Shown in pieces: positions 37,961 through 58,625 of a stretch of DNA of 64,000 nt. The translations under genes were made by a program, and so were the position numbers. Below the pieces are notes generated by a model. That model did not search any database. It saw only the letters and a list, made by a program, of their open reading frames with translations, and was not told the DNA's origin. This stretch comes from Hahella chejuensis KCTC 2396 (GTDB taxonomy: Bacteria > Pseudomonadota > Gammaproteobacteria > Pseudomonadales > Oleiphilaceae). Numbering within the stretch: the stretch's first letter is position 1; the number at the start of each line of letters is the position of its first letter. The stretch covers positions 558,001 through 622,000 of the forward strand of contig NC_007645.1 in the NCBI RefSeq assembly GCF_000012985.1. Direction: 5' to 3'.

Positions 37961-38278
37961 TTAGGCGGGCTGCATATCGTCCAGGTCCGGCAATGGTTTT
38001 TTAAGCACATCCTGATACATGAAGCGCAGTGCTTTCAACGCCTGTTTGCAGCGTGCGGGCGAAGCGCTCAGCGTCGTGGCGACATAACGCAGAAAGCGAC
38101 GCACGTCTTTTTCTCCAAGCTCTTTCGGGCTGCGATTATGATTAAAGGATATGAAGCGATAAATCCAATGCAGGTAGGAGTGCTCGGTGCGGGGACTGAA
38201 GCCCTGCGATTCAATCGCCTGCTTCAATTGGCAGATAAATTCAGGTTCGTTCGGCAACAGTAATTCAGCAGTTTCCAT
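37961..38278 (-). CDS. Free-standing N-terminal SAM-like domain of a tyrosine/integron integrase
   Basis: A 105-residue protein that resembles only the core-binding domain of integron-type tyrosine recombinases: FSPRTEHSYLHWIYRFISFN, KDVRRFLRYVATTLSASPAR, QALKALRFMYQDVLKKPLPD. The catalytic domain with the R-H-R-Y residues is absent, so it cannot recombine DNA. GAGG lies 8 bases before the start. There is no downstream remnant of the missing domain. It may be a decayed integrase or an independent DNA-binding protein. Confidence 0.75.
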   Translation of the reverse strand: METAELLLPNEPEFICQLKQAIESQGFSPRTEHSYLHWIYRFISFNHNRSPKELGEKDVRRFLRYVATTLSASPARCKQALKALRFMYQDVLKKPLPDLDDMQPA

Positions 38279-43956: not shown

Positions 43957-44034
43957 GCTCGCCTGATGGTGATGGTTGGGGAAACCGGGCTCATGGCCCC
44001 TGATCGAGGGGGTGATTAAAACATGATGAGTCAT

Positions 44035-44297
44035 ATAAAGTTGTTGTTTTTCAGTATATTACGCTTGTCATTTTCCGCTATCACCCCGGTTATCGTAAAT
44101 CTGGTACACCACTGGGACATTTTCTGGCTCGGTGGAAATATTGAGCAAGATTATTATTTCTCTGTAGTGTGTCGGACACATCCGGATTTTACAGAATTGG
44201 TCTATGGATAACATCATCGGCTTTCAAGGAAAGCTCTCCACGTAATAGCTGCTTTTACTCAATCTCTAACCACCAAACCATGATCTTAGTTGGTCTG
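44035..44297. other. Left edge of the accessory region, no gene recognised
   Basis: This AT-rich stretch separates the last clear host gene (the helicase) from the first phage-type remnant. No tRNA, integrase or direct-repeat attachment site was identified. A 62-codon frame here (44023-44211) has no ribosome site and no recognisable motif. Confidence 0.4.
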
Positions 44298-44507
44298 CGC
44301 GGCCATGGCCGGCAATGGCACAAGTTTAAGGCGGCGAGATAACTACTTGTGTCAGGTCTGCTTAAGGCAGGGTGAACCAGTGTGGCCAGTGAGGTGGATC
44401 ACATCTGGCCAAAGGCGAGAGGCGGCGACGATCAAGGCAAAAGCCTGCGGGCAATTTGTAAGGGCTGCCATCGGTGCAAAACAACTAATACGCGGCAATG
44501 TATTTAG
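44298..44507 (+). pseudogene. Frameshifted HNH endonuclease remnant (phage type)
   Basis: Three successive frames together encode a typical phage HNH nuclease. The order is RGHGRQWHKFKAAR, then RRDNYLCQVCLRQGEPV, then EVDHIWPKARGGDDQGKSLR and AICKGCHRCKTT. The zinc Cys pairs and the catalytic His (VDHI) are recognisable, but two frameshifts and a stop (TAA around 44340) break the gene. Such HNH genes usually lie beside terminase genes in phage genomes, so this looks like a prophage fragment. Confidence 0.75.
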
Positions 44508-44555
44508 TGAACTATCATATTTTTACTTGGCCAAATAAAAATATGAGGAGGATTT

Positions 44556-44735
44556 ATGGGCATAGACGAAGCTGCGGAGGCTAGCTCTGATGAAGAGATT
44601 ATTGCAATAGGTTCTCATTTCAATTTGGATGGGCTATCACGCACGAAAGGCAACTTGGAGCGCAGCGGAAAACTAATCCGTGTGCTTGCGCTTGTTATAC
44701 AAAATCTCTACTACCCTCTCTGTATACAGTCTTGA
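44556..44735 (+). CDS. Short ORF with strong ribosome site (possible truncated phage gene)
   Basis: ATG 44556 is preceded by GAGGAGG with a 5-base spacing, the best ribosome site in this region. The product has 59 residues: MGIDEAAEASSDEEIIAIGS then HFNLDGLSRTKGNLERSGKL, with a hydrophobic end. It overlaps the 3' end of the convergent Abi-like gene by 25 bp. Its position just after an HNH remnant is where a small-terminase gene often starts in phages, so it could be the truncated start of one. No family match can be claimed. Confidence 0.4.
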   Translation: MGIDEAAEASSDEEIIAIGSHFNLDGLSRTKGNLERSGKLIRVLALVIQNLYYPLCIQS

Positions 44736-45541
44736 ATGTACCTAAAAACGGTATACATCGCGTTAACAATGGCGGTTGCTTCAGGGACATCTAGCAAGTC
44801 ATTCACATGTGCGAGGCTCGCCCTATTTCTGAGCGTAGAAAAGGCGTCAATTGATGCAGCAAACGAATTAAGGACTTTAGTAACGTCTTCAGCCCTATGA
44901 CCTGACGCTTGCAATGCCGGATGAAACTGTCGAAGTTGCTTGAATGCTTTGGATGCCGTAGGGTCACTGGGAAGATCAATTTGATTGTCGGTACAAAGTT
45001 GCACCAAATATCCATGGAGTGCAGTATGCGCACGATCAATGGCGCTTGAAGAATCCACTGTGCCGATTAAAGCCTTCGCGTCTCCCAAAGCTCTTATCAC
45101 CGAAGTCGAAATAGATTCACTGAATTCTGGCGCAGCAACACTGCCAGCTGTTTGATTTAACTGACCATCAACAACTTGATAATGGTCCTGGTTTTTAAGC
45201 AGAATCTGATTGATATGCTGCACCGTTGGGACAGTAGCGCCACTACGCTCTAGCTCTTCTAAAGTCTCATATACAGCAGCGATAAAATTAGGAGCATCTT
45301 GTGCTGCATTCTGAGCCAGTCTGGACATATCAGACTCGGCCCAGTCAAGCGAAGAACTGCGGGCATAATAATCACCAGAAACTTTGCACAAGTGCTGTTT
45401 AAATACTTCAATTATTCGCTGCCGATCCATTGCCCCCGATACTTTTCTGATCAATGAAATAAAATCATCTACAGACAGATCACTGAGTGGTGTCGTTGAG
45501 CCCATGGGAAATCTAAGCTCACTTGTCATTTGAAGCGGCAT
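44711..45541 (-). CDS. Abortive-infection candidate with Abi_C/HEPN-like C-terminus
   Basis: A 276-residue protein beginning at ATG 45541, with GGAGGAC about 7 bases upstream. The N-terminal half is helical and unrecognised. From about residue 150 it resembles the abortive-infection C-terminal (Abi_C) family: ALGDAKALIGTVDSSSAIDR, SKAFKQLRQFHPAL, VTKVLNSFAASIDAFSTLRN. The segment LRNRASLAHVND carries R-N-x5-H (Arg about 238, His about 245), the pattern of HEPN RNase active sites. By family knowledge such proteins act in phage defence through RNA cleavage. No cognate antitoxin is evident. The neighbouring phage remnants fit a cargo gene. Confidence 0.65.
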   Translation of the reverse strand: MPLQMTSELRFPMGSTTPLSDLSVDDFISLIRKVSGAMDRQRIIEVFKQHLCKVSGDYYARSSSLDWAESDMSRLAQNAAQDAPNFIAAVYETLEELERSGATVPTVQHINQILLKNQDHYQVVDGQLNQTAGSVAAPEFSESISTSVIRALGDAKALIGTVDSSSAIDRAHTALHGYLVQLCTDNQIDLPSDPTASKAFKQLRQFHPALQASGHRAEDVTKVLNSFAASIDAFSTLRNRASLAHVNDLLDVPEATAIVNAMYTVFRYIQDCIQRG

Positions 45542-46546
45542 CAATTGTCCTCCCTATTTTGTATATCGCGCATGCGCATTGCCCCATTCCAACACTTTGA
45601 AGATAGTTCCTCTAGCCCACTGATTCCAGTGCAAAAAATCCCGCGAAGTCAAACTACCTCATTTACGAAAAACTTTGCGCACGCATATACACTTGCTTGG
45701 GGGCTCGTTATCACAACGGGCTAGATCCCAAGTTATTGAATAGAAGCACTTTTCAGGAAAACTTCATCGAAAAGCCGAGCCATTTGGTACGACAAAGCGT
45801 AATTAACATTATAGAAAACAGCGAGCTATAGTTGAGGAGTAGCCCTCCGTGTGAGGGTGTGGCATGAAACGTATCGTCTAGAGATTAGGGCATGGAGACA
45901 GCATAAGTCGCCCCCGCGAGAGGTGATTTTTCTCTCACTTACAATTCAAAACGCCTCAAAAACCTTCAATAGATGAAATTCAGCACTTAGGCGTCAGTGC
46001 TTCCAGCATAAGGGGTTCCCCGTTTTCCGACTTTCCCTCCACAAAGTATTTTGCAAAACCCGCAGGCGTGGGGAGGAGTGAATTTTTCGGTTTATTAAGG
46101 GCTGTATGTGCTTGGCTGCTCTAGTTATTGTCTTACTTTGGATAAGGTCCAAGCGCCTGAGATCACCGGAAGAGGAAAAGGCAATGGATAAACATTAACC
46201 AAGTTACCCCCATTTCGTCGCTACACTTATTAGTTGATCCCAAGTATCTACCGGAATAGCTAAGCGAACGCCAAGCATTGCTAGGGATTTGCGGGCTTAT
46301 AAACCGCATTTCGACAGGCAATACCATTTAACACCAGCACGATGGAGTCTATCGAGTAAACTCTCATTAGCATAAGCAACCCCCTACAAGGCTCCAAAGA
46401 GCATACGGACATTAGGTCTTTAAATGAAAGCGCCCTGGGAATCTCCAGGGCGTAGTAGTGCGGAGTATGGAAACTGCTGTTATCAATTGGATAGAAATAA
46501 CAAAATTTTGTCTTGCTTTAAGAGACGAAATAAGACGAGGTAGGTA
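45542..46546. other. Long gap without recognised gene (decayed DNA?)
   Basis: This 1-kb stretch has many stops in all frames. A hairpin at 46427-46452 (CGCCCTGG/CCAGGGCG) may terminate the minus-strand peptidase gene. Two short minus-strand frames around 46380-46210 (LHRAGVKWYCLSKCG and LAMLGVRLAIPVDTWDQLI) read like pieces of a broken protein, but no family can be named. A plus-strand 64-codon frame (45530-45724) lacks a ribosome site. Confidence 0.35.
46427..46452 (-). terminator. Hairpin downstream of the C80-like gene
   Basis: The stem CGCCCTGG/CCAGGGCG with a 6-base loop lies about 95 bp beyond the stop of the 46547-47164 gene on the minus strand. It is followed in that direction by CTTTCATTT. 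Plausible weak intrinsic terminator. Confidence 0.45.
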
Positions 46547-47164
46547 TTACCCCCTCATCACCGCTCCCATAGAAATCAATAGCTTTGGTCGAGCACGGTC
46601 CCTAGGCTTCATATAGGTAGCATTTATCTCATCCTCATCTTCAACTGATCTGGGTTTTCTTATATCTGACATAGTATAGCGGCCATCAATAACCCAATTA
46701 CGCCCTCGACTATCGGTTACTGACTCTCCGTTAGATCCGCGAAACTGCATGTAAGCCACATCAGGTAAATATGCGGCCATATATCTTGTAAAGCTCTCTA
46801 GGAAACGTTTAGTGACTCCATCCGGGTGCGGGGCTGCCGAAAAGCAAGAGTGGATAGTTACTTTTACAATATTCTTGCGTCTTAGCAATATCGGACTATC
46901 GGTATCTACAACAAGAAACTTTGCAAGGTCCTGCGCTTTAAAATCACCAACTTGAACCTGATTGCCATGAGCAACAATATGAATCTTTTTGTCATCTTTC
47001 GATGCCGTTGATTGCATATATTCAAGATATTGAGCCTGCATAACTATATTGGCATCATACTCTTTATTATTTCTTATCAGCTTATCACGAATGTTTTCAG
47101 CATCTTTTATGAGTTTTTGACGCGACTCGGGGGGCTCATCCCCATAAAAAAATACTAGGATCAT
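46547..47164 (-). CDS. Free-standing caspase-like (clan CD, C80-like) cysteine peptidase candidate
   Basis: A 205-residue protein with AAGGAG 8 bases before ATG 47164. It has the clan CD dyad pattern: strand-His-Gly in KKIHIVAHGNQVQVGDF (His66) and strand-Cys in IVKVTIHSCFSAAPH (Cys107). The intervening helix is KAQDLAKFLVV. After the Cys come SFTRYMAAYLPDVAYMQFRG and SVTDSRGRNWVIDG. This order matches the cysteine protease domain of MARTX/TcdA-type toxins (peptidase C80), in which the domain autoprocesses a large toxin. Here it stands alone with no toxin fused, so it may be an effector or defence protease. An inositol-phosphate site cannot be judged by eye. Confidence 0.6.
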   Translation of the reverse strand: MILVFFYGDEPPESRQKLIKDAENIRDKLIRNNKEYDANIVMQAQYLEYMQSTASKDDKKIHIVAHGNQVQVGDFKAQDLAKFLVVDTDSPILLRRKNIVKVTIHSCFSAAPHPDGVTKRFLESFTRYMAAYLPDVAYMQFRGSNGESVTDSRGRNWVIDGRYTMSDIRKPRSVEDEDEINATYMKPRDRARPKLLISMGAVMRG

Positions 47165-47819
47165 TTATTCAACTCCTTGAATTTGTGTTACAGAAGCTGT
47201 GGCTAGAGGCAATTAGTAACTACCTCCAATAAGTAAAGCGTAAATCCAAGCACTAAGCCGTCAGCTATTTAGTCATAATAGACGTCTAATTTATGGAGTA
47301 TGTGACATAAGTCTGTATCTCATAACCCCATTTGAATCTTTACGACATTAACTGTTCAGTGAGACGCAACTTTTCTCATGGGGAAAATGTCATGCTACGA
47401 AGCGACTCATGCACTACATTCAGCAACCTGCGACCACTCTAAGGGAAGCGCTAGAGCAGCGGTGGCGACGAATTGATCTCGTTAGAAAAGCGAGAAGAAA
47501 CTGTCATGATGAGAAGAGGCTCGCCGCCTGTTTTAGTGAAGCGTTTGAAACATCATGACCTAAAGCGGAGAGGTAACAGTTCTTTTCAGAATCCCACTGT
47601 AAGCACAGCCCTAATGTTTACCTGCTTAACGCTCACATGCTTTTAGACTTAATATGTCGCAATCTGGGGGCAAGGATTTAAGATATGTTTTTATTCGCTA
47701 GCCCTCGGAATGTCTGAAAACCTGACTAACTTTAAAATTGAAGCTTTCTGATAGAGAGGAGTTTAGGTTTTGCTATAAAGCCAAAGCCTGTTATTGGCGT
47801 AGCCCGCCATGACGACGGG
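47165..47819. other. Gap between the C80-like gene and the phage repressor
   Basis: 655 bp upstream of the peptidase gene and downstream of the repressor. A 49-codon plus-strand frame from ATG 47409 (MHYIQQPATTLREALEQRWR...) has no clear ribosome site and no recognised match. The rest is AT-rich with stops in all frames. It may contain the peptidase promoter near 47165-47300. Confidence 0.35.
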
Positions 47820-48479
47820 TTAATCCGGCAACAAATCGAATTCAAGCCTTTTCACAACGCCAATGACGGCGCTTTCTTCTGTCAGCTCTATTGGCTTGTA
47901 ATCGGGGTTCAGCGACATCAAGTATTGGTTCGGGCCGTCAACAACCAGCTTCTTAATAATGGCCTCTTTTGAACCTTTCAGCCCGACAACCACAACCATA
48001 CCGCTTACCGGGGTGATGTCGGGGTCAACGACCACAATGGCTCCCTCAGGAATGGACGGCGTTCCATGCGGGTTCGCCATGGAGTCACCCACCGCTTTCA
48101 TGGCGAAGGCGTGCGGTCCGACAACGACACTGATCCCGCGCCAGGCTATCGCGTCCTTATGGTGGAACGTATTCGCGATCTCCTTCCACACACGAGCTTG
48201 CTGGGGTGTAATTAAGGGCACTTTCCCAAGGCTGGCGTAAGGCTGGTAACCCGCTATCTTTTCATCTCCGGCCCTCTCCGCCTTCCCGTAAAGCAGCCAG
48301 TCCGGCTGGCAACTGAGCGCCGAGCAAAGCAAGTGAAGATTCTCGCCTCGGGGAGAGGTTTCCCCCTTTTCCCATTGGGAGATGGTGACGTGCGAAACCC
48401 TCACCATCTTGCCCAGGCGACCTTGAGTTAATCCGAGAAAATTCCGCCTTTCTCGCAGGCGCTGTCCTAAGTCTGTCAT
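47820..48479 (-). CDS. CI-type phage repressor with S24 autocleavage domain
   Basis: A 219-residue LexA/CI-like protein. The N-terminal HTH (about residues 5-62) reads LRERRNFLGLTQGRLGKMVR and VSHVTISQWEKGETSP. The C-terminal S24 domain has the catalytic Ser in AVGDSMANP (Ser133) and the Lys in KEAIIKKLVV (about 176). An Ala-Gly pair at about residues 76-77 is a candidate cleavage site. It should bind the operators in the divergent gap next to the cro-like gene and be inactivated by RecA after DNA damage, as family knowledge. Confidence 0.93.
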   Translation of the reverse strand: MTDLGQRLRERRNFLGLTQGRLGKMVRVSHVTISQWEKGETSPRGENLHLLCSALSCQPDWLLYGKAERAGDEKIAGYQPYASLGKVPLITPQQARVWKEIANTFHHKDAIAWRGISVVVGPHAFAMKAVGDSMANPHGTPSIPEGAIVVVDPDITPVSGMVVVVGLKGSKEAIIKKLVVDGPNQYLMSLNPDYKPIELTEESAVIGVVKRLEFDLLPD

Positions 48480-48486
48480 GAAAGAG

Positions 48487-48542
48487 ATCTTAAGCGATAT
48501 TGACGAAACATATCTTTAATGTTCAAATTTATCAAATCTTAA
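48487..48542. promoter_or_regulatory. Candidate operator/promoter region of the lambdoid switch
   Basis: The 84-bp gap between cI and cro-like genes carries three similar direct repeats: ATCTTAA (48487), ATCTTTAA (48512) and ATCTTAA (48536), spaced 25 and 24 bp. A TTGACG at 48500-48505 with TCAAAT 17 bp later could be the rightward promoter. The arrangement recalls tripartite lambda operators, but binding is not proven. Confidence 0.5.
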
Positions 48543-48563
48543 ATTCATGAGAAAGGAATGTCG

Positions 48564-48758
48564 ATGAGAAAAGCAGACGCCGTTGCCTATTTCGGAGGCA
48601 AATCAAAGCTCGCCAACGCGCTGGGCGTGGCTCCCGCGTCAGTGTCTCAGCGGGGCGAGTTTCTGCCAATGTTACGCGCCTATCAGGTTGAGCGCATGAC
48701 TGGCGGAAAGTTAAGAGTTCGGAAAAGAGTGGTGGCCCAGATCGGGCGGAGAGTATGA
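48564..48758 (+). CDS. Cro-like phage regulator
   Basis: A 64-residue protein from ATG 48564 (AAAGGA 6 bases upstream; ATG 48558 is too close to that site). The HTH is AVAYFGGKSKLANALGVAPA and SVSQRGEF, typical of Cro/YdaS-like regulators that oppose CI. A Lys/Arg-rich end follows. It is divergent from cI and its stop overlaps the start of the O-like gene, as in lambdoid early operons. Confidence 0.85.
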   Translation: MRKADAVAYFGGKSKLANALGVAPASVSQRGEFLPMLRAYQVERMTGGKLRVRKRVVAQIGRRV

Positions 48759-49768
48759 AGACGGAGAAGGAAATCAGTATGACGGCGCAATCTAATGAAA
48801 TGGGTAATGTGGTGCCTTTCAGAGCGCCGCAGGCGTCGAGTGAAGCGCCACCGGAGTCAACAGGAGCGCCACAGGAGGCGAGCCCTATCAAAGCCGATTT
48901 GGACAATGGCTACACGCGCGTGGCCAATGAGTTGCTCAACGCGCTGGCTCGCATCGATTTAAGCGGTCGGGAATTCAAGATTGTTAACGCGGTGATGCGT
49001 AAGACGTTTGGCTTCAACAAGGCGATGGACTGGATTTCGCTGGAGCAGCTCGTTGAGATGACGGGCATTTCCCGGCGTCACCTTCCGTCTTTAATCACGG
49101 GCTTGGTGCGTGCGAAGGTGATACGCCGGGAGGGGGAGTCCAACGTAAAAAAATATGCGGTCAACACTCGCCTGGGCGAGTGGGATTTATCACTCAAAAA
49201 AGGCGAGAAAAAAGACGATCCAGAGAATCCAGCACCAGCGACCGAGGAAGCGAGCGCCCCGGATTCGGGAGCAATAAACCCGGATTTGGGACGAAAAAAA
49301 CCGGATTCGGGTGCGGAGCTGTTCCCGGATTCGGGAAGAATAAACCCGGATTCGGGGGCGGATGTATCCGAAAAAGGGGGTATTCGTCCCGAATTAGGGG
49401 ACCACAAAAGACATATAGACATGAAAGACATTGTTACAAAAGACATAGCGCGCACGAAGGGCCCTACCCGAGCGCCGGATGATTTCGACATCACCGACGC
49501 GCTGTTCGCCTGGGCGATCAAAAACCAGATCACCACGGACCTTGCCATCGAGACCGACAAGTTCCTGGACCACCACCGGGCCAAGGGAACGAAATTCCAG
49601 TGCTGGAAATCCGCATGGCGTAACTGGATGCGCAACAGCATGAGGTTTGCGCCAAAGCCAACCCGTCAATCGCACCTCAACGAATACGGCGCAGCGGGCA
49701 ACAGCACAGTGCCTGGGGATGTTTACGGATTTCACGACACAAGTTGGGCGGATGATTTAGGGATATAA
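48755..49768 (+). CDS. Phage replication initiator, lambda O-like
   Basis: A 337-residue protein. Residues about 50-145 form the Phage_rep_O N-terminal winged helix (NGYTRVANELLNALARIDLS, REFKIVNAVMRKTFGFNKAM, WISLEQLVEMTGISRRHLP). Residues about 169-215 are a repeat-rich linker (PDSG/PDLG/PELG units every 7 residues) encoded by an iteron-like DNA array. The C-terminal part (FDITDALFAWAIKNQ, WRNWMRNSM) is typical of phage primosomal proteins that recruit the helicase loader. ATG 48755 overlaps the cro-like stop by 4 bp; ATG 48779 is a possible shorter start. The origin is probably inside this gene. Confidence 0.88.
   Translation: MKTEKEISMTAQSNEMGNVVPFRAPQASSEAPPESTGAPQEASPIKADLDNGYTRVANELLNALARIDLSGREFKIVNAVMRKTFGFNKAMDWISLEQLVEMTGISRRHLPSLITGLVRAKVIRREGESNVKKYAVNTRLGEWDLSLKKGEKKDDPENPAPATEEASAPDSGAINPDLGRKKPDSGAELFPDSGRINPDSGADVSEKGGIRPELGDHKRHIDMKDIVTKDIARTKGPTRAPDDFDITDALFAWAIKNQITTDLAIETDKFLDHHRAKGTKFQCWKSAWRNWMRNSMRFAPKPTRQSHLNEYGAAGNSTVPGDVYGFHDTSWADDLGI
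49259..49399 (+). repeat. Iteron-like array inside the O-like gene, candidate phage replication origin
   Basis: Seven near-palindromic units based on CCCGGATTCGGG begin (from CCGGA...) at 49259, 49280, 49301, 49325, 49346, 49368 (degenerate) and 49389 (variant CCGAATTAGGG). Steps are 21, 21, 24, 21, 22 and 21 bp, two helical turns. An AT-rich stretch (49401-49445) follows directly. In lambda the origin is the same: iterons inside gene O next to AT-rich DNA. The repeats also encode the 7-residue protein repeat, which is a coding alternative. Confidence 0.75.
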
Positions 49769-49770
49769 CC

Positions 49771-50481
49771 ATGGAAACAAAACCCATCGGATCACAGCAA
49801 ATTCAAGACGCAATCAGTCGAACGGTACGCCGATGCGACACGCTACAGCATGCGGCCCAACGTAAAGCTTATGGACAGTCTGAGGCGGCCATTTCCAAGC
49901 AGGCGGCGGAGGTTGTCAATCGCCTGTTCACGGAGCTTAGCGGGATATTCCCGGCTTGGAAGTACGCCTTTCCAGACCATGAAGTCATCCAGCAGGCCAA
50001 GAAAGCTTGGACCAAGGGCTTCATCGAAAACGGAATTCTCACTATGCAGCAGGTTCAAGTGGGGTTGGTGAGAGCGCGCAGACTGAATACTCCGCACATT
50101 CCCAGCGTGGGTCAGTTCATCGCATGGTGTAAGCCGACAGCGGAAGACCTTGGGCTGATGCCGGTGCAGGCGGCCTACCGTCTGGCGTGCGAGGGGGGTC
50201 AGAAGCTCGAACACAGTGACAGCCTTGCCCATCTGGCCGTGCGCATTGCAGCGAGGGAAACGGGCTGGTATGAGCTTAGAACACGTCTGGAAAGCGAAAT
50301 GCTGCCGCTGTTCACCCGCAATTACGACATCGTCTGTCGCCGCGTCATGAACGGAGAGGACATCCAGGCGGACATCCCCAAGGCGCTGCCTGAGGAGCCC
50401 GTTAAAGCCTCTCGCCCGGTTCCGAAAGAGGAGGCCCGCCGGAGGATGGCGGAGTTGCTGAAATCCATCTCGCCCAACTAG
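49771..50481 (+). CDS. Phage helicase-loader, lambda P-like
   Basis: A 236-residue protein starting 2 bp after the O-like gene. It matches the lambda P family: AAEVVNRLFTELSGIFPAWK, FPDHEVIQQAKKAWTKGF, GILTMQQVQVGLVRARRLN and IPSVGQFIAWCKPTAEDLG. P-type proteins capture host DnaB helicase and deliver it to the O-bound origin. The C-terminus is charged and Pro-rich (KALPEEPVKASRPVPKEE). Confidence 0.9.
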   Translation: METKPIGSQQIQDAISRTVRRCDTLQHAAQRKAYGQSEAAISKQAAEVVNRLFTELSGIFPAWKYAFPDHEVIQQAKKAWTKGFIENGILTMQQVQVGLVRARRLNTPHIPSVGQFIAWCKPTAEDLGLMPVQAAYRLACEGGQKLEHSDSLAHLAVRIAARETGWYELRTRLESEMLPLFTRNYDIVCRRVMNGEDIQADIPKALPEEPVKASRPVPKEEARRRMAELLKSISPN

Positions 50482-50577: not shown

Positions 50578-50934
50578 ATGAACAGAACGATGAATGAAAC
50601 GCCGTGGCTGTTGGAGCAATGGGCTCAGTGGTCAAAGATGGATGCAAGCCTGGGCTATTCGTCATCAACGCCCTTTTCCCGTTTGAACGGCAGCGCGACG
50701 CGTTCCCCCGTTATCACGGATCAGGAAGCGGCGGCGGTGGATTTGGCGGTGTCCAAACTGCGGACGCGGGATGAAGAGATGGGAGAGGTCGTGCGGCTGT
50801 ATTACATGGCGGGAGAGAACCTGTCTTATGTCGTCAGACGCATGCCGAAACTGGATCGGCGCAAGGCGGACCTGCTGGTTAAGTCGGGCGTCGCCTGGAT
50901 CGACGCTACGCTTTACTCACACACATTGCAGTGA
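50578..50934 (+). CDS. Phage antitermination protein Q-like
   Basis: A 118-residue protein related to the phage antitermination Q group. It has LLEQWAQWSKMDASLGYSSS, TDQEAAAVDLAVSKLRTRDE and VVRLYYMAGENLSYVVRRMP, the last a helix-turn-helix-like segment. Such proteins load on RNA polymerase at the late promoter so that late genes are read. ATG 50578 is taken, ATG 50590 is possible. No late-gene block follows, which suggests a deletion. Confidence 0.8.
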   Translation: MNRTMNETPWLLEQWAQWSKMDASLGYSSSTPFSRLNGSATRSPVITDQEAAAVDLAVSKLRTRDEEMGEVVRLYYMAGENLSYVVRRMPKLDRRKADLLVKSGVAWIDATLYSHTLQ

Positions 50935-51071
50935 CAGGAGAGAAGGGAGCTGTAGGAAACGATGGCGGGCTAAGTGTGTAGCGTCCTCTAACTATTTCGT
51001 ATGGCGTATTGTGCGGGACCATTGAGTTAATTAAGGTTCCGCCTTCACTCCCACACTTTTGGACCGCTACC

Positions 51072-52676
51072 GTGACAGACTCCAGACAGGACTTTATTTG
51101 CGACATGCTCAGAACCTTCGCCAACGAACACGAGAAAGGCGGAATACGGGATCTGTTAATGATCACGCTGCGTGCGCTGGAGCAGGTCACAGACAACGAA
51201 GAAGACATGCTGCAAGCGCTGATGGCGGTGATCTGCGCCACCGATTGTCTGGATGAGAGCGAGGTTATCGCCGACTTGGCGTTCGCCTCGCTGATGGCGG
51301 TGATGAATGCGGTGACAGATCGCTGTCCAAGCCCCAACCGGTTGGCGGAAATTAGCATCTGGGTTGATGAACAACTTGGGCTTGCGTTGGAAGCCGGCGT
51401 GGACACGATGAGGCTGCGAAGAATCATACAATGCGCCACCTACGCCAGACTCGAAATCAGAGAAGACGTGATATTTCGGATTAACGAGAAAGAAGTGGAA
51501 GACAGCCCGCCGTTCATTGGCGTTCCCACGACCGAATCGATGGCGAGAGCCATCCTGGAGCTGGTCGAGATTAATGGCTGTAAAACCGAGTGGGATTTGC
51601 TGCAAGTGTTGACCCATCTGGGAGCGCAAATGCCCGAAGGCGCGACGGCATTGTATGTGCCAGCGCTGTTAGACCTTGAAGCGCCCTGGCGCGACTGCGC
51701 GGCGTTGCTGGCCATGGACCCGATCAGGAAAAACCGACAGAGCGCCATTGAAGCCTGGCTGTCGCCGGAGTGTCAGACGCTTGCCAATGAAACGGACCTA
51801 GCCCGGCTGGTGGCTGCCCGTAAATGGCTGCCTGAGGAGGATAGAGAGCTTATAGATATCGTGGTTAAGGGATTGCAGCGCCTTCGTGTGGGCGGCGCTG
51901 TGACGCCTTCCAGCAAGGCGGAGATACTAGGGGGCTATGTCTCCCCATTTGATTCTCAGGGGGCGTTCTATGCCGTCCTGGCGCTGCGTCATGAAGACGC
52001 CTGGAAGATCTGGAGCGCTCGCCTGCAACAGGGCGTTGGCGTCACCAAGGGCGGCGTGCTGGTATTTCCAGATTTCGAGTCGCTCGAACATCACATTGAG
52101 GGCGGCAAACACCACTTTCACCTTGGCGAACTCTCCCTTTTCACCCTGCAAAAAATCATTCGCCACTTCCTGCTGAAAAACCGCGATTCGGGAACGCTAC
52201 CGGCGCCAGAGCTGCTATGGCTGATCAGCCATGTCGAAGGGGAATGGTCGTTGCCGGACGCCATCAATATGGAGGGCATCATAGAAATGCTGACGGATGC
52301 GGGAGAACTGCCTGCGGACCAATGGGACTTTGCGCAAGACATGCGCAGTCTGACGCAACCTTGGTTACGGTCGGAATGGACAAACGAGCGCCCAACGAGT
52401 GAGGCGCTAATCCTTGAATATCTGGAGCCGCAACGGGAAAGCTGGCTGGAGCGTTGCGCCCTTTTGGCTTGCTTCCTTCATGAGCGCAAAGGAAGACGCA
52501 AGGAGATTGAGCTGCTGAGGCAAGCCGCCGCCAGCATCGCCTCCGGCAAACCGTTGATAAACGTTTCCCTTATACGGGAAATGGCGGAATCCGCGTTTCA
52601 TTGGGAAGGAGCGCCAGTCCAGTGGCATGATATGCCGTCCGAGATAGCGAAGACAATTCGGCGGCAAATTTATTAA
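51072..52676 (+). CDS. Large helical protein of unknown function
   Basis: The open frame begins at 51009, but GTG 51072 (TDSRQDFICDMLRTF) or ATG 51102 are more plausible starts; none has a strong ribosome site. The 534-residue product is mainly helical, rich in Glu, Leu and Trp, and has no signal peptide or membrane segment. Segments such as DLLMITLRALEQVTDNEEDM and AFASLMAVMNAVTDRC suggest helical repeats in the first half. The second half mixes beta (SPFDSQGAFYAVLALRHEDA) and helical regions. Base composition is like the host chromosome. No family recognised; the position just after the phage Q-like gene suggests cargo or the right flank. Confidence 0.65.
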   Translation: MTDSRQDFICDMLRTFANEHEKGGIRDLLMITLRALEQVTDNEEDMLQALMAVICATDCLDESEVIADLAFASLMAVMNAVTDRCPSPNRLAEISIWVDEQLGLALEAGVDTMRLRRIIQCATYARLEIREDVIFRINEKEVEDSPPFIGVPTTESMARAILELVEINGCKTEWDLLQVLTHLGAQMPEGATALYVPALLDLEAPWRDCAALLAMDPIRKNRQSAIEAWLSPECQTLANETDLARLVAARKWLPEEDRELIDIVVKGLQRLRVGGAVTPSSKAEILGGYVSPFDSQGAFYAVLALRHEDAWKIWSARLQQGVGVTKGGVLVFPDFESLEHHIEGGKHHFHLGELSLFTLQKIIRHFLLKNRDSGTLPAPELLWLISHVEGEWSLPDAINMEGIIEMLTDAGELPADQWDFAQDMRSLTQPWLRSEWTNERPTSEALILEYLEPQRESWLERCALLACFLHERKGRRKEIELLRQAAASIASGKPLINVSLIREMAESAFHWEGAPVQWHDMPSEIAKTIRRQIY

Positions 52677-52794: not shown

Positions 52795-53457
52795 ATGCTT
52801 TACAGCTTTCTTTGCGCCACTCTATGGGCCTCGACAGGAATTTTCGTTAAGTATATTGATGGTCTGAGCGTACCGCACATTATCTGGGGGCGTTTTCTCA
52901 TCGCCTTCTTATTCGGGCTTCTCTTTGTTCAAAGCAGAGCCAAGTTTCAATTTACGCCTCTCCAGCAACGCTCATACAGCGAATATGCATTAGCCTTGAT
53001 GATGACCGCCTATTATGTACTGGCGACTTATTCGTTCTTTTACGCGCCTGTCGCCGTGGCGGCGCTGCTTATTGCACTAGCTCCTTTATTCACATTTTTG
53101 CTACGGCTGTTTATCAAAGGTGAATTCCATCGCAATGAGTTACTGGGCTTTATCATCGCCTTTTTGGGACTCATGCTTTACTTCTACGGCAAGGACTATG
53201 CTGGAGAGGGATACAGTACGGATGCGATAATACTGGGAGGCGTCTGTGCGCTCAGCGCCGCTATTTTGAGGGCGGCCTTTTCGTTCATTGTTTGGGAGAG
53301 CGTTGGAAAAGGACGCTCCGTAGATGCCGCTAATATTAATAACAATACGCTGCTATTGGGCGTCATTTTGTTGAGTCCTGCGCTCTTTTTCCAGAGCGTG
53401 TCTGGCGCTATTAAGCACCTAAACGAAATTAATCTTATATTCCTGTCCAAACTTTGA
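52795..53457 (+). pseudogene. EamA/DMT transporter, N-terminal part (split by IS630 element)
   Basis: The first about 210 residues of a ten-helix drug/metabolite transporter. It begins MLYSFLCATLWASTGIFVKY after AGGACAGGT. It contains WGRFLIAFLFGLLFVQSRA, YVLATYSFFYAPVAVAALLI, APLFTFLLRLFIKGEF, and the start of the second EamA repeat (GGVCALSAAILRAAFSFIVW). The frame then runs into the insertion element and stops at 53457. The C-terminal part resumes at about 54488, so the gene is disrupted and the protein presumably not functional. Confidence 0.85.
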
Positions 53458-53958
53458 CAGGATGTCGTTCACTGACTCTTTCAGCCTGTCGAAAGTCTCA
53501 TACGAATCCAAAGGCAGCCAGCTGTACTTCACCTTTCGCCACAAGATCTCTATCAGGTTTAGCTCCGGTGAATATTTCGGCAAATAGATCGGCCAGATGC
53601 CTTTATCTATCCAATCCAACCTATGTCGGCGAAACTCCGCAGAGCGATGTATGGAGGCGTTGTCCAGAAGCACCACGGCTGGCTTAAGCGGATCTTTGCT
53701 CTCCGCCAGCTTATTAAAAAGCGCTACGACTTTGGCGGAGTCCACCCGCTCCTCTGTGGCATGGAATATCAGCTTCTGGCGGCGACTCATAAACCCCAGA
53801 ACGTTCAGTCTCTTATTGTGTGGATAGGATTTCATTTGCGTCGGCTTCCCCACAGGGCTCCAGCCATAAGGTAAGTTGGAACGCTGACTGAAGCCTGATT
53901 CATCAAAGTAGTAAAGCTCGATTTCGCCTGCATCCTCCCAGGATTGAAGATCTTTCAC
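53419..53958 (-). CDS. IS630 transposase, C-terminal DDE domain (second frame)
   Basis: This frame encodes the catalytic domain with the DDE residues: YYFDESGFSQRS (Asp), PAVVLLDNASIHRS (Asp) and KYSPELNLIEILWRKVKYSW (Glu). It ends GQEYKINFV. The ORF has an ATG at 53958, but the reading frame continues upstream to about 54045 (YSFKRFRFSLRALRDEV), where it overlaps the end of the HTH frame. A ribosomal +1 (or -2) shift at A8 would join the two into one protein of about 330 residues. Confidence 0.88.
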   Translation of the reverse strand: MKDLQSWEDAGEIELYYFDESGFSQRSNLPYGWSPVGKPTQMKSYPHNKRLNVLGFMSRRQKLIFHATEERVDSAKVVALFNKLAESKDPLKPAVVLLDNASIHRSAEFRRHRLDWIDKGIWPIYLPKYSPELNLIEILWRKVKYSWLPLDSYETFDRLKESVNDILSKFGQEYKINFV

Positions 53959-54028
53959 AACGCCCTGAAACTGGCGGAAGGCGACTTCATCCCGAAGCGC
54001 GCGCAGCGAAAAGCGGAATCGCTTGAAG

Positions 54029-54427
54029 CTATACTTTGATTTTTTTTAAGTTCCGTTTAACGGTCTCCAGACTAGCGCTTTTTCCAGTTTCTTTCTCCAG
54101 ACGTATCTGGACGTCTCGTAGTTGTTGGGGCTGCTCGTCAATCCACTTACAAACCTTTTCTTGTTCCTGCTCCGTGTAAATGGGCGGTCTTCCCGGGGAG
54201 GCGTCGCTAATGAGGCCGCATATTCCCATGCTTTCCCACTGCTCAATCCAGATCGAAATGGTGTTGCGGTGGAAGTCGATAATGTCGGCAATTTTATCGA
54301 TTTTATACCCCTTATTGCTGAGCAGTATGGCGTGACAGCGAATACGGAAGCGGGAGCTCGGGCTGTAGCGAAATCCATCGGTAAGAGTCTTTATTTCAGC
54401 GGGCTTAAGATGATTGACGTACTTCAC
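54029..54427 (-). CDS. IS630 transposase, N-terminal DNA-binding domain (first frame)
   Basis: A 132-residue product: MKYVNHLKPAEIKTLTDGFR, then the homeodomain-like HTH GYKIDKIADIIDFHRNTISI, then the Pro-rich linker ISDASPGRPPIYTEQEQEKV and a second HTH (LRDVQIRLEKETGKSASLET). It ends RNLKKIKV at a run of eight As, where the frame could shift into the DDE frame. The alternative is a simple frameshift mutation that inactivates the copy. Confidence 0.88.
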   Translation of the reverse strand: MKYVNHLKPAEIKTLTDGFRYSPSSRFRIRCHAILLSNKGYKIDKIADIIDFHRNTISIWIEQWESMGICGLISDASPGRPPIYTEQEQEKVCKWIDEQPQQLRDVQIRLEKETGKSASLETVKRNLKKIKV

Positions 54428-54774: not shown

Positions 54775-54968
54775 TAAGTGAGAGCAACGAGTCTCTTAAT
54801 GCTTGTTGCTCACACTCCCAAACCGTACTTGGCCATCGCATATACTTTGATATTCCCAGCGGTATATTGCTGAAATTAAGTGGGCTATACTCGTTATTCA
54901 ACTCGTAATAGATGAGCTTGATAGTCAACATTAAACTGTTAGTTCACCGTATAAAATTTGGGGATAAA

Positions 54969-55331
54969 ATGAAAAAAATAAATGCGTATGCGAATACTCT
55001 GGCCGAAATTGAAGCCCTCAAGAAGAAGCTTGAGGCGCTTGAAAATGATGAAGGCCTGAAGAAGAGCCTGGAGTTCAAGAAGAAGCTGGAAGACTTAATG
55101 TCCAAGTATGGAGTCTCACGGGATGAAGTGATCAATCTGCTTGGCGGTGGCGGGAAAGCGGCCTCTAAAGCGTCGGCGTCCGACAAACGTCGCGGCACTC
55201 GTCCGTTAAAAGTATATAAGAACCCAAAAACTGGAGAAACGGTAGAGACTCGCGGCGGAAACCACAAAGTGCTGAATGAGTGGAAAGAAAAATACGGTAA
55301 AGAAAAAGTTGAAAGCTGGTTAGTCTTTTAA
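54969..55331 (+). CDS. mvaT: MvaT-family xenogeneic silencer (H-NS-like)
   Basis: A 120-residue protein from ATG 54969 with GGGGA upstream. The N-terminal coiled coil has AYANTLAEIEALKKKLEALE and EFKKKLEDLMSKYGVSRDEV. A flexible Lys/Ala linker leads to the C-terminal DNA-binding domain (KVYKNPKTGETVETRGGNHK, LNEWKEKYGKEKVESW), which is closely MvaT-like. MvaT proteins coat AT-rich DNA and silence foreign genes in Pseudomonas relatives. The gene itself lies next to an AT-rich accessory stretch, which may mean that it is an additional copy carried by mobile DNA. Confidence 0.93.
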   Translation: MKKINAYANTLAEIEALKKKLEALENDEGLKKSLEFKKKLEDLMSKYGVSRDEVINLLGGGGKAASKASASDKRRGTRPLKVYKNPKTGETVETRGGNHKVLNEWKEKYGKEKVESWLVF

Positions 55332-57978: not shown

Positions 57979-58533
57979 ATGATTCCTGAAGAAAAGCTAC
58001 CTGTTTTATTTGACGTACTGAGCTGGAGCAAGTGCGAAGCAGGGCGTCCCACCGAAAGCAGTATTGAGAAAATCAATGCTCATTATGAAATCACTCTCCC
58101 TGCGTCGTTAATTAGATTTATGCAGGCCAGCAAATACTATGCAGATTCTCTTTGTCTATTTGATGAGAGCTACCAGTCTTGGAATCACATCATTCGAGCA
58201 AACAGCTATTATAAGAATATTCGCAGAAGGAAAGGCAGGCGATGGTGTTATGTGATGCCAAGGCATTTCGTATTAATCAAGGCCGGTCATGACTCTCGTA
58301 ACTTGGTTTTAGATAAGTCGAAGTATGATCCAGTAACTGGTGAGTATGGCCTTCAATACTGGTTTCCGGGCTATGAAATTGAGTTTGGTGATTCATACCC
58401 TGACTTTAATACCTATATGAGATCATTGGTTGAGTTCTTAATTGCAAGAGCTGATGAGGAGACGCAAGCTCTATGTCAGGCGATAGTTGGAAGCGTCGGC
58501 TCCTCTGAGGAGGGGGGCGGGTCAGATCTCTAA
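57979..58533 (+). CDS. SMI1/KNR4 (SUKH) family protein, probable immunity protein
   Basis: A 184-residue protein with the SUKH signature near the N-terminus (GRPTESSIEKINAHYEITLP, ASLIRFMQASKYYADSL). A second half follows (GRRWCYVMPRHFVLIKAGHD, YGLQYWFPGYEIEFGDSYPD). SUKH proteins are common immunity proteins of polymorphic contact-dependent toxins. The obvious large partner here is the RTX protein on the opposite strand, which has no recognised toxin tip, so the cognate toxin is unknown. A ribosome site (GGGGG) precedes ATG 57979. Confidence 0.8.
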   Translation: MIPEEKLPVLFDVLSWSKCEAGRPTESSIEKINAHYEITLPASLIRFMQASKYYADSLCLFDESYQSWNHIIRANSYYKNIRRRKGRRWCYVMPRHFVLIKAGHDSRNLVLDKSKYDPVTGEYGLQYWFPGYEIEFGDSYPDFNTYMRSLVEFLIARADEETQALCQAIVGSVGSSEEGGGSDL

Positions 58534-58625
58534 TACCTGAGCGCCCAACACCGCACCCTTAAGTCTTTTTTTATACCCGCGAAATTAAAAATTTAGCCTT
58601 GTCATTTACAGCCTTTCCTGATGCA

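What the first reader, a model, noticed from the sequence alone, without database searches (positions are those of the whole stretch)
46547..47164. Stand-alone C80/caspase-like peptidase in a phage-flanked accessory region
The protein has His66 in IHIVAHGN and Cys107 in VTIHSCFSA, with the spacing and following elements of the cysteine protease domain that autoprocesses large MARTX and TcdA/TcdB toxins. Here it is not fused to a toxin and has its own strong ribosome site. Free-standing caspase-like proteases are increasingly seen as effectors of defence or programmed cell death, so this may be an effector whose substrate is another protein. No upstream sensor is adjacent, which leaves its trigger unknown.
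Basis: partly seen in the sequence, partly recalled or inferred. Interest (0 to 1): 0.7.

Follow-up and report, generated by a model that had tools for sequence, protein, structure and literature searches.

The report
Free-standing toxin-type protease in prophage remnant
A small bacterial gene inside the remains of a virus encodes a free-standing relative of the caspase-like cutter built into some large bacterial toxins; it probably cuts a protein inside the cell, perhaps to stop infecting viruses, but its function has not been tested here.

Summary
The 205-aa gene is real, on the minus strand, with His66 and Cys107 as described. The C80 (toxin protease domain) assignment holds as distant homology: Pfam C80 is the best hit but below the curated cut-off (14.3 vs 23.8 bits). 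The protein matches a bona fide free-standing C80 protein of another genome (BLASTP 4e-6), and a profile of two such proteins scores 19.7 bits against at most 6.9 for 3000 shuffles, with both catalytic residues in register. The fold could not be tested (pLDDT 36). The same genome holds a second, clear, free-standing C80 gene, so stand-alone C80 is not unique. No close homologue was found. The gene lies behind a cI-type repressor in a broken lambdoid prophage; its terminator resembles one that follows a cargo gene (Tdi1-type immunity) in a congener prophage, and an Abi_C/AbiJ-like gene follows. Best reading: a prophage-cargo cysteine protease, plausibly an intracellular defence or cell-death effector; the defence role is circumstantial. 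Rivals: exported effector, lysogeny protease, relic. New variant of a known kind; interest 0.45.

The parts
46547..47164 (-). C80-like (caspase-type, clan CD) free-standing cysteine peptidase, 205 aa
   Evidence: ORF; Pfam C80 below cut-off; homology to free-standing C80 proteins
46967..46969 (-). His66 codon, predicted catalytic base
   Evidence: sequence; aligned to His72 of L061 and His68 of L002
46844..46846 (-). Cys107 codon, predicted nucleophile
   Evidence: sequence; aligned to Cys109 of L061 and Cys107 of L002
47173..47178 (-). AAGGAG ribosome site, 8 bases before the ATG
   Evidence: sequence
46431..46452 (-). terminator-like stem behind the gene; lies in a 59-base block (46415-46473) shared at 84% with the stretch between a cargo gene and the lysis gene of one congener prophage (L053 715-773)
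   Evidence: both stretches printed
47820..48479 (-). cI-type repressor (HTH_3 plus S24 peptidase)
   Evidence: Pfam; PHROG phrog_4 3.1e-42
47308..47490 (+). probable IS remnant between repressor and C80-like gene: recurs at 67-69% in 8 loci of the own and a congener genome; in the two whose ORFs I listed it adjoins or overlaps transposase-like ORFs (reading from letters, recalled)
44711..45544 (-). Abi_C / AbiJ-like abortive-infection protein
   Evidence: Pfam Abi_C 1.3e-13; PADLOC AbiJ 6.3e-6; several plasmid relatives annotated 'abortive infection family protein'
45553..45762 (-). dispersed attC-like repeat ending just before the Abi_C gene's start
   Evidence: palindrome folding mixed
44298..44487 (+). 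HNH-endonuclease remnant shared with congener prophages
   Evidence: HNH reading from the ORF letters, recalled motif
48755..49768 (+). lambda O-like replication protein
   Evidence: Pfam 2e-33
49771..50481 (+). lambda P-like helicase loader
   Evidence: Pfam 2.8e-32
50578..50934 (+). Q-like antiterminator
   Evidence: Pfam 5.4e-6; PHROG 1.7e-16
58508..58594 (+). 87-base block that in 4 of 7 congener loci examined (L053-L056) lies ahead of a terminase-like gene; apparent right edge of phage-derived sequence
   Evidence: terminase reading from ORF letters, recalled

Best explanation
A free-standing, divergent C80-type cysteine peptidase carried as cargo of a lambdoid prophage, now a remnant. 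SHOWN: intact ORF with a ribosome site; distant homology to free-standing C80 proteins with the His/Cys dyad in register; position behind a cI-type repressor and ahead of a terminator block that in one congener prophage follows a cargo gene. INFERRED: it folds like a caspase / toxin protease domain; Cys107 activated by His66 cuts a protein substrate in trans, after a hydrophobic residue if it keeps the C80 pocket; it is expressed in the lysogen, perhaps by read-through from the repressor; it stays latent until a ligand or partner moves its C-terminal flap; and its cutting harms the infected cell or the phage, so that it acts as an exclusion / abortive-infection effector. The trigger is unlikely to be inositol hexakisphosphate made in the cell, since that is described as a eukaryotic signal.
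For: Homology: Pfam C80 best of 24,736 models, E 0.051; BLASTP 4e-6 over a 165-column alignment to L061, itself C80 at 1.9e-13; hhalign E 1.3e-5, probability 80.9, to the two-member alignment; profile 19.7 bits vs best shuffle 6.9 of 3000 and best decoy 2.6 of 751. Context: repressor, O, P, Q; same strand as the repressor, with no terminator- or promoter-like site listed between them; terminator block shared with a congener prophage, where the preceding cargo gene is a Tdi1-type immunity protein; a second congener prophage carries a protein matching PADLOC's dGTPase model (5 of the 6 proteins scanned in that call matched nothing); Abi_C/AbiJ-like neighbour. Lower G+C than the flanks (0.41-0.45 vs about 0.55). 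Precedent: a CHAT caspase-like protease in Borvo and in type III-E CRISPR (PMC10952713, passages).
Against: Pfam cut-off not reached. No structure: pLDDT 36. BLASTP to the clear C80 paralogue L002 finds nothing, and a profile of L061 alone does not separate the protein from shuffles. NCBIfam none, PADLOC only a Cas6 match at 0.0044 that I take for chance, PHROGs best 0.028. No homologue in phages, plasmids or viral contigs nor, beyond chance, in sampled genomes, so no conserved neighbour can be shown. The two free-standing relatives are not in evident defence contexts. The promoter/terminator scan finds no more sites than shuffles do. The Abi_C gene lies about 1 kb away behind a terminator-like stem and a repeat, so it is probably a separate unit. 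The prophage is broken: a probable IS remnant lies between repressor and gene.
Confidence: 0.42

Rival explanations
1. A competition or host-directed effector: a C80/'Tox-Caspase'-type peptidase that is exported or injected into other bacteria or eukaryotic cells and cuts proteins there; in a eukaryote it could still use inositol hexakisphosphate as trigger.
For: Caspase-like domains act as processing and as toxin domains in polymorphic toxins, and stand-alone toxin cassettes exist (PMC3482391, passages). Conflict genes are near: SUKH-like protein 57979-58533 (E 3.6e-4, below cut-off), Rhs fragment in the matching G004 island (6.8e-6, just below cut-off), Tdi1-type immunity gene in the congener slot.
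Against: No Pfam trafficking domain; the N-terminus starts directly with the stretch that aligns with L061 from residue 2 on, leaving no room for a classical signal peptide (my reading; no signal-peptide tool was run); no immunity gene recognised directly next to it.
Confidence: 0.2
2. A lysogeny or phage-development protease: it processes the repressor or another phage protein, so it regulates the prophage rather than defending the cell.
For: Directly behind the repressor in the same orientation with no terminator-like site listed between.
Against: Not found in congener G001, whose two prophages with related O/P/Q have other ORFs behind the repressor (L052/L059 and L054/L060); the repressor has its own S24 peptidase domain.
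Confidence: 0.1
3. A relic: a captured peptidase gene, no longer functional, in a decaying prophage.
For: Broken surroundings: HNH remnant, probable IS remnant, no phage integrase among the neighbouring ORFs scanned, a transposase-like insertion in a transporter gene; found in this genome only in every sample searched.
Against: The ORF is full length with start, ribosome site, terminator-like stem and both catalytic residues.
Confidence: 0.2
4. Not a C80-type protein: an unrelated fold with a chance HG...C pattern.
For: Below the Pfam cut-off; structure prediction uninformative; no BLASTP match with the clear C80 paralogue L002; profile of L061 alone not above shuffles.
Against: and the two-member profile, link it to free-standing C80 proteins with the dyad in register, well above shuffles and decoys.
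Confidence: 0.08

Closest known systems
Peptidase family C80 (Pfam PF11713; cysteine protease domain of MARTX and large clostridial toxins)
   Same: Homologous through free-standing C80 proteins; His-Gly and Cys motifs in register; a second-half motif (TDSRGRNW) aligns with the VDSSGHRW of L061.
   Different: Below Pfam's cut-off; free-standing 205 aa with no toxin to process; His-Cys distance 41 instead of 49; ligand pocket not examined.
   Same: Same size, dyad, free-standing; L061 aligns at BLASTP 4e-6.
   Different: Only 21-26% identical, depending on the alignment; one behind a biosynthetic-looking ORF set (read from letters), one behind flgA-flgM-flgN (Pfam); no phage genes recognised among the ORFs I read there.
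CHAT-type caspase-like defence proteases (Borvo; type III-E CRISPR Csx29)
   Same: Clan CD-type His/Cys protease reported in phage-defence systems (PMC10952713, passages; Csx29 from the abstract of PMC10028731 in the listing).
   Different: No CHAT match, no sensor partner recognised.
Tox-Caspase domains of polymorphic toxins
   Same: Caspase-like peptidase, processing or toxin domain, in conflict-gene regions (PMC3482391, passages).
   Different: No trafficking domain and no adjacent immunity gene recognised here.
Prophage exclusion genes behind the repressor (lambda rex type; BstA-type defence)
   Same: Gene behind a cI-type repressor, same orientation.
   Different: No sequence relation tested; the comparison of position is from recall (for BstA only the abstract in the listing was seen).

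Membership tests
Peptidase C80 (PF11713) | Score above the curated gathering cut-off | tested here: not met
   14.3 bits against 23.8; hence called C80-like, not filed as a member
Peptidase C80 (PF11713) | Homology to accepted C80 proteins | tested here: met
   BLASTP 4e-6 to L061; hhalign 1.3e-5 to L061+L002; by BLASTP with L061 and by the two-member profile 0 of 3000 shuffles and 0 of 751 decoys score as high. Not met with L002 alone by BLASTP nor with a profile of L061 alone
Peptidase C80 (PF11713) | Catalytic His and Cys in register | tested here: met
   His66/Cys107 aligned with His72/Cys109 and His68/Cys107
Peptidase C80 (PF11713) | Caspase-type fold with beta-flap | tested here: inconclusive
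   pLDDT 36; only part of the flap region aligns
Peptidase C80 (PF11713) | Inositol hexakisphosphate pocket, cleavage after Leu, self-cleavage | not testable with these tools
   needs bench work, or toxin-domain letters that were not read (referred)
CHAT caspase-like defence protease | CHAT domain match | tested here: not met
   only C80 and DUF2652 listed at E up to 10 (the filters drop most weak matches)
CHAT caspase-like defence protease | Adjacent sensor or partner | tested here: inconclusive
   neighbours are a repressor and, about 1 kb away, an Abi_C protein; whether either is a partner is unknown
Known anti-phage system (PADLOC 2.0.0) | Match to a defence-protein model | tested here: not met
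   only Cas6 at 0.0044, 14.7 bits, taken as chance
Polymorphic toxin with Tox-Caspase domain | N-terminal trafficking domain and adjacent immunity gene | tested here: not met
   205-aa protein with no other Pfam domain; neighbours are repressor and Abi_C
Prophage cargo gene | Located among phage genes at a place where a related prophage carries cargo | tested here: met
   phage genes and shared terminator block; only one congener prophage shows this block behind a cargo gene

The most novel reading that the evidence does not exclude
The C80 fold, known from the self-cutting domains of large toxins, also exists as a free-standing, intracellular executioner protease in bacteria, and this prophage-borne copy is a phage-exclusion / cell-death effector with a bacterial trigger other than inositol hexakisphosphate. 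That would make the toxin domain an offshoot of a bacterial immunity protease, parallel to caspases and CHAT proteases.
Probability: 0.25. Interest if true: 0.78.

Novelty: new variant of a known kind. Interest (0 to 1): 0.45.

Why it matters
In the review passages that I saw, C80 proteases are parts of giant toxins, switched on by a eukaryotic metabolite. A free-standing bacterial form in prophage cargo territory raises the question of what such a protease cuts, and what switches it on, inside a bacterium. If it protects against phage it would add a protease family to bacterial immunity; if not, it still points to a small, scattered group of stand-alone C80 proteins on which my searches found no study.

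Tried and rejected
Rejected or empty: single-sequence structure prediction (pLDDT 36), so no fold search was run. Pattern scans for homologues: genome contigs with the single sequence and with the two-row alignment A1 (20 and 119 pattern matches, none confirmed); viral contigs six times (window protein; L002; alignments; L061), none confirmed; tblastn against phages and plasmids, no match. Weak matches (3 of the 368 other genomes, E 0.027-0.047) are no more than chance would give and were dropped. (365 genomes) returns its own three training rows plus two weak ones (0.022, 0.028), also dropped. Of the genomes with PF11713 matches I dropped those below the curated cut-off (4 of 6, 11 of 13). 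The PADLOC Cas6 match (0.0044) was dismissed as chance. A typed pattern for the exact arms of the terminator found no match in seven congener loci; the shared block rests on BLASTN and on the two stretches printed. A structured-RNA reading of 44000-49000 was tested with Rfam (0 matches). An 'empty site' comparison failed: the three congener stretches share only the helicase gene with the window. A complete integron was not found: no integrase above the cut-off in the genome.

Literature: passages only of PMC4357240, PMC3482391, PMC2900308, PMC3153235, PMC12445089 and PMC10952713; all other papers only as search listings. I found no paper on a free-standing C80 protein in a prophage or in phage defence. 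This rests in an open-licence library; several listings were capped (15 of 51, 15 of 91, 8 of 1,825, 15 of 1,454), and the papers listed hold none of the C80 phrases. The one paper with 'peptidase C80' and 'effector' (PMC7250499, on Aeromonas) was not opened. The original CPDadh paper was not found; the term occurs only in PMC2900308.

Full report
WHAT WAS CHECKED. The finding's coordinates hold a 205-codon ORF with an ATG start, on the minus strand. The window is bases 558001-622000 of a single-contig genome of 7,215,267 bases. From recall that size is the genome of Hahella chejuensis, a marine gammaproteobacterium; no call tested the name, and only looked up its taxonomy.

IS IT C80-LIKE? 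Pfam's C80 model is the best of 24,736, but at 14.3 bits against a cut-off of 23.8 (E 0.051 for the whole library; about 2e-6 for this one model named beforehand, my division). NCBIfam has nothing, PHROGs nothing below 0.028, and no PDB chain matches by sequence (best E 0.81, a chitinase). The PF11713 search of 398 phylum genomes gave 6 with a match at E up to 0.01, 2 of them over the cut-off; of 369 class genomes, 13 at E up to 0.1, 2 over the cut-off. Over the cut-off were: a second gene of the window's own genome (found in both samples), one in genome G951, and one inside a 4627-residue frame that I did not fetch. The first two are free-standing: L002:8199-8810, 203 aa, C80 at 4.5e-40, and L061:7986-8627, 213 aa, C80 at 1.9e-13.

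These two are the bridge. The window protein matches L061 by BLASTP at 4e-6 over a 165-column alignment, from the first strand (FYGD in both) through His-Gly and Cys to a DSxGxxW motif further on. hhalign against the alignment of both gives E 1.3e-5, probability 80.9, over residues 2-159. A profile HMM of the two scores the window protein 19.7 bits, against at most 6.9 for 3000 shuffles and 2.6 for 751 natural ORFs; by BLASTP with L061 the real protein scores 31.6 bits, the best of 3000 shuffles 25.8 and the best of 751 ORFs 24.6. Results against: BLASTP with L002 alone finds nothing (in one search the real protein is not listed while shuffles reach 28.9 bits), and a profile of L061 alone gives 6.3 bits, with one shuffle at 6.5. 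The profile of all three finds five MARTX protease-domain sequences in the PDB (4.9e-10 to 6e-8); the profile without the window protein does about as well (1e-9 to 9.8e-8), so this shows that the pair is C80, not that the window protein is. I conclude homology, about 0.9 likely, but call the protein C80-like because the curated cut-off is not met.

STRUCTURE. A single-sequence AlphaFold2 run gave pLDDT 36 and says nothing. The alignment rows that would help are not of the kinds the tool admits, so the fold is untested.

DISTRIBUTION. No homologue of the window protein was found in the 57 other genomes of 58 relatives, in the 389 others of 390 in the order or, beyond chance, in the 368 others of 369 in the class, nor in the pattern scans of genome and viral contigs, phages or plasmids. 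These samples overlap, and the scans miss distant relatives; the gene is an orphan at that sensitivity.

SURROUNDINGS. To one side lie a cI-type repressor with an S24 domain (minus strand) and, divergently, O-, P- and Q-like genes: the control region of a lambdoid prophage. Two prophages of congener G001 with related O/P/Q (L052/L059, L054/L060) carry other ORFs behind the repressor, with an integrase-like ORF further out (integrase from ORF letters, recalled). Here that side holds a probable IS remnant (47308-47490), the C80-like gene, a terminator-like stem, a dispersed repeat, an Abi_C/AbiJ-like gene (Pfam 1.3e-13, PADLOC 6.3e-6) and an HNH remnant that in congeners lies behind Q, on the late side of the phage. 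The stem behind the C80-like gene sits in a 59-base block found, at 84%, in a G001 prophage between a cargo gene and a Peptidase_M15-type lysis gene. That cargo gene is a T6SS Tdi1-type immunity protein (2.5e-23), and the other G001 prophage carries a protein matching PADLOC's dGTPase model (4.1e-67). These are picks: of the ten proteins I chose for three matched no family, and of the six five matched none. So the gene sits in phage cargo territory, where conflict genes occur, but the prophage here is broken and rearranged.

HOW IT MAY WORK. In the Vibrio C80 domain the dyad lies at the ends of two strands, cleavage follows leucine, and ligand binding to a beta-flap makes the scissile bond fit (PMC4357240, passages). 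By analogy Cys107/His66 would cut a substrate protein in trans, held latent until a ligand or partner moves the flap. The scan lists no promoter-like or terminator-like site between repressor and gene (overall it finds no more sites than shuffles do), so expression with the repressor in a lysogen is possible. An exclusion or abortive-infection role follows from the company it keeps, and from caspase-like precedent (CHAT proteases in Borvo and type III-E CRISPR; PMC10952713, passages). Against it: the two free-standing relatives sit behind flgA-flgM-flgN and behind a biosynthetic-looking ORF set, so free-standing C80 proteins need not be defence proteins.

VERDICT. Observation confirmed, with the strand supplied. 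Interpretation partly supported: C80-like and free-standing, yes; defence effector, unproven. Stand-alone C80 is not unique, since the same genome has another. New variant of a known kind; interest 0.45.

Noticed in passing
45553-45762 (minus) and copies in L013, L014, L018, L030-L038: Dispersed attC-like repeat; 10 match rows in the own genome, two of them parts of one copy. In one search, for 8 of 12 distinct copies the right end lies within 35 bases of the start of the longest same-direction ORF nearby, a different gene each time (Abi_C, HEAT-like, DUF4062, unknown), as with gene cassettes; in the other 4 the ORF was 67 bases inside, 118 or 352 bases away, or absent. Palindrome folding is mixed: z -2.34 on one strand, -0.56 on the other.
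   Followed up: partly
37961-38278 (minus): N-terminal piece of an integron integrase (TIGR02249 9e-20, model positions 2-90 of 315), about 7.3 kb from the cassette-like repeat; no integrase above the cut-off in the genome.
   Followed up: partly
L002:8199-8810 (own genome, C1 5658198): Clear free-standing C80 protein (4.5e-40) 116 bases behind an ORF set that looks biosynthetic (KASIII-like, ATP-grasp-like, Rieske-like by letters, no family search), same strand.
   Followed up: partly
   Followed up: partly
51009-52676: 555-aa protein without a Pfam, PHROG or NCBIfam match (PADLOC only PglZ at 0.022), kept at about 92% DNA identity in congener G004 together with the following transporter and MvaT-type genes.
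   Followed up: no
53419-54427: Transposase-like ORFs (IS630 type by letters, recalled) interrupt an EamA-like transporter gene that is whole in G004.
   Followed up: no
54912-55331 and 57979-58533: MvaT-type xenogeneic silencer (2.1e-18) and a SUKH-like protein below cut-off on either side of a low-G+C stretch.
   Followed up: no
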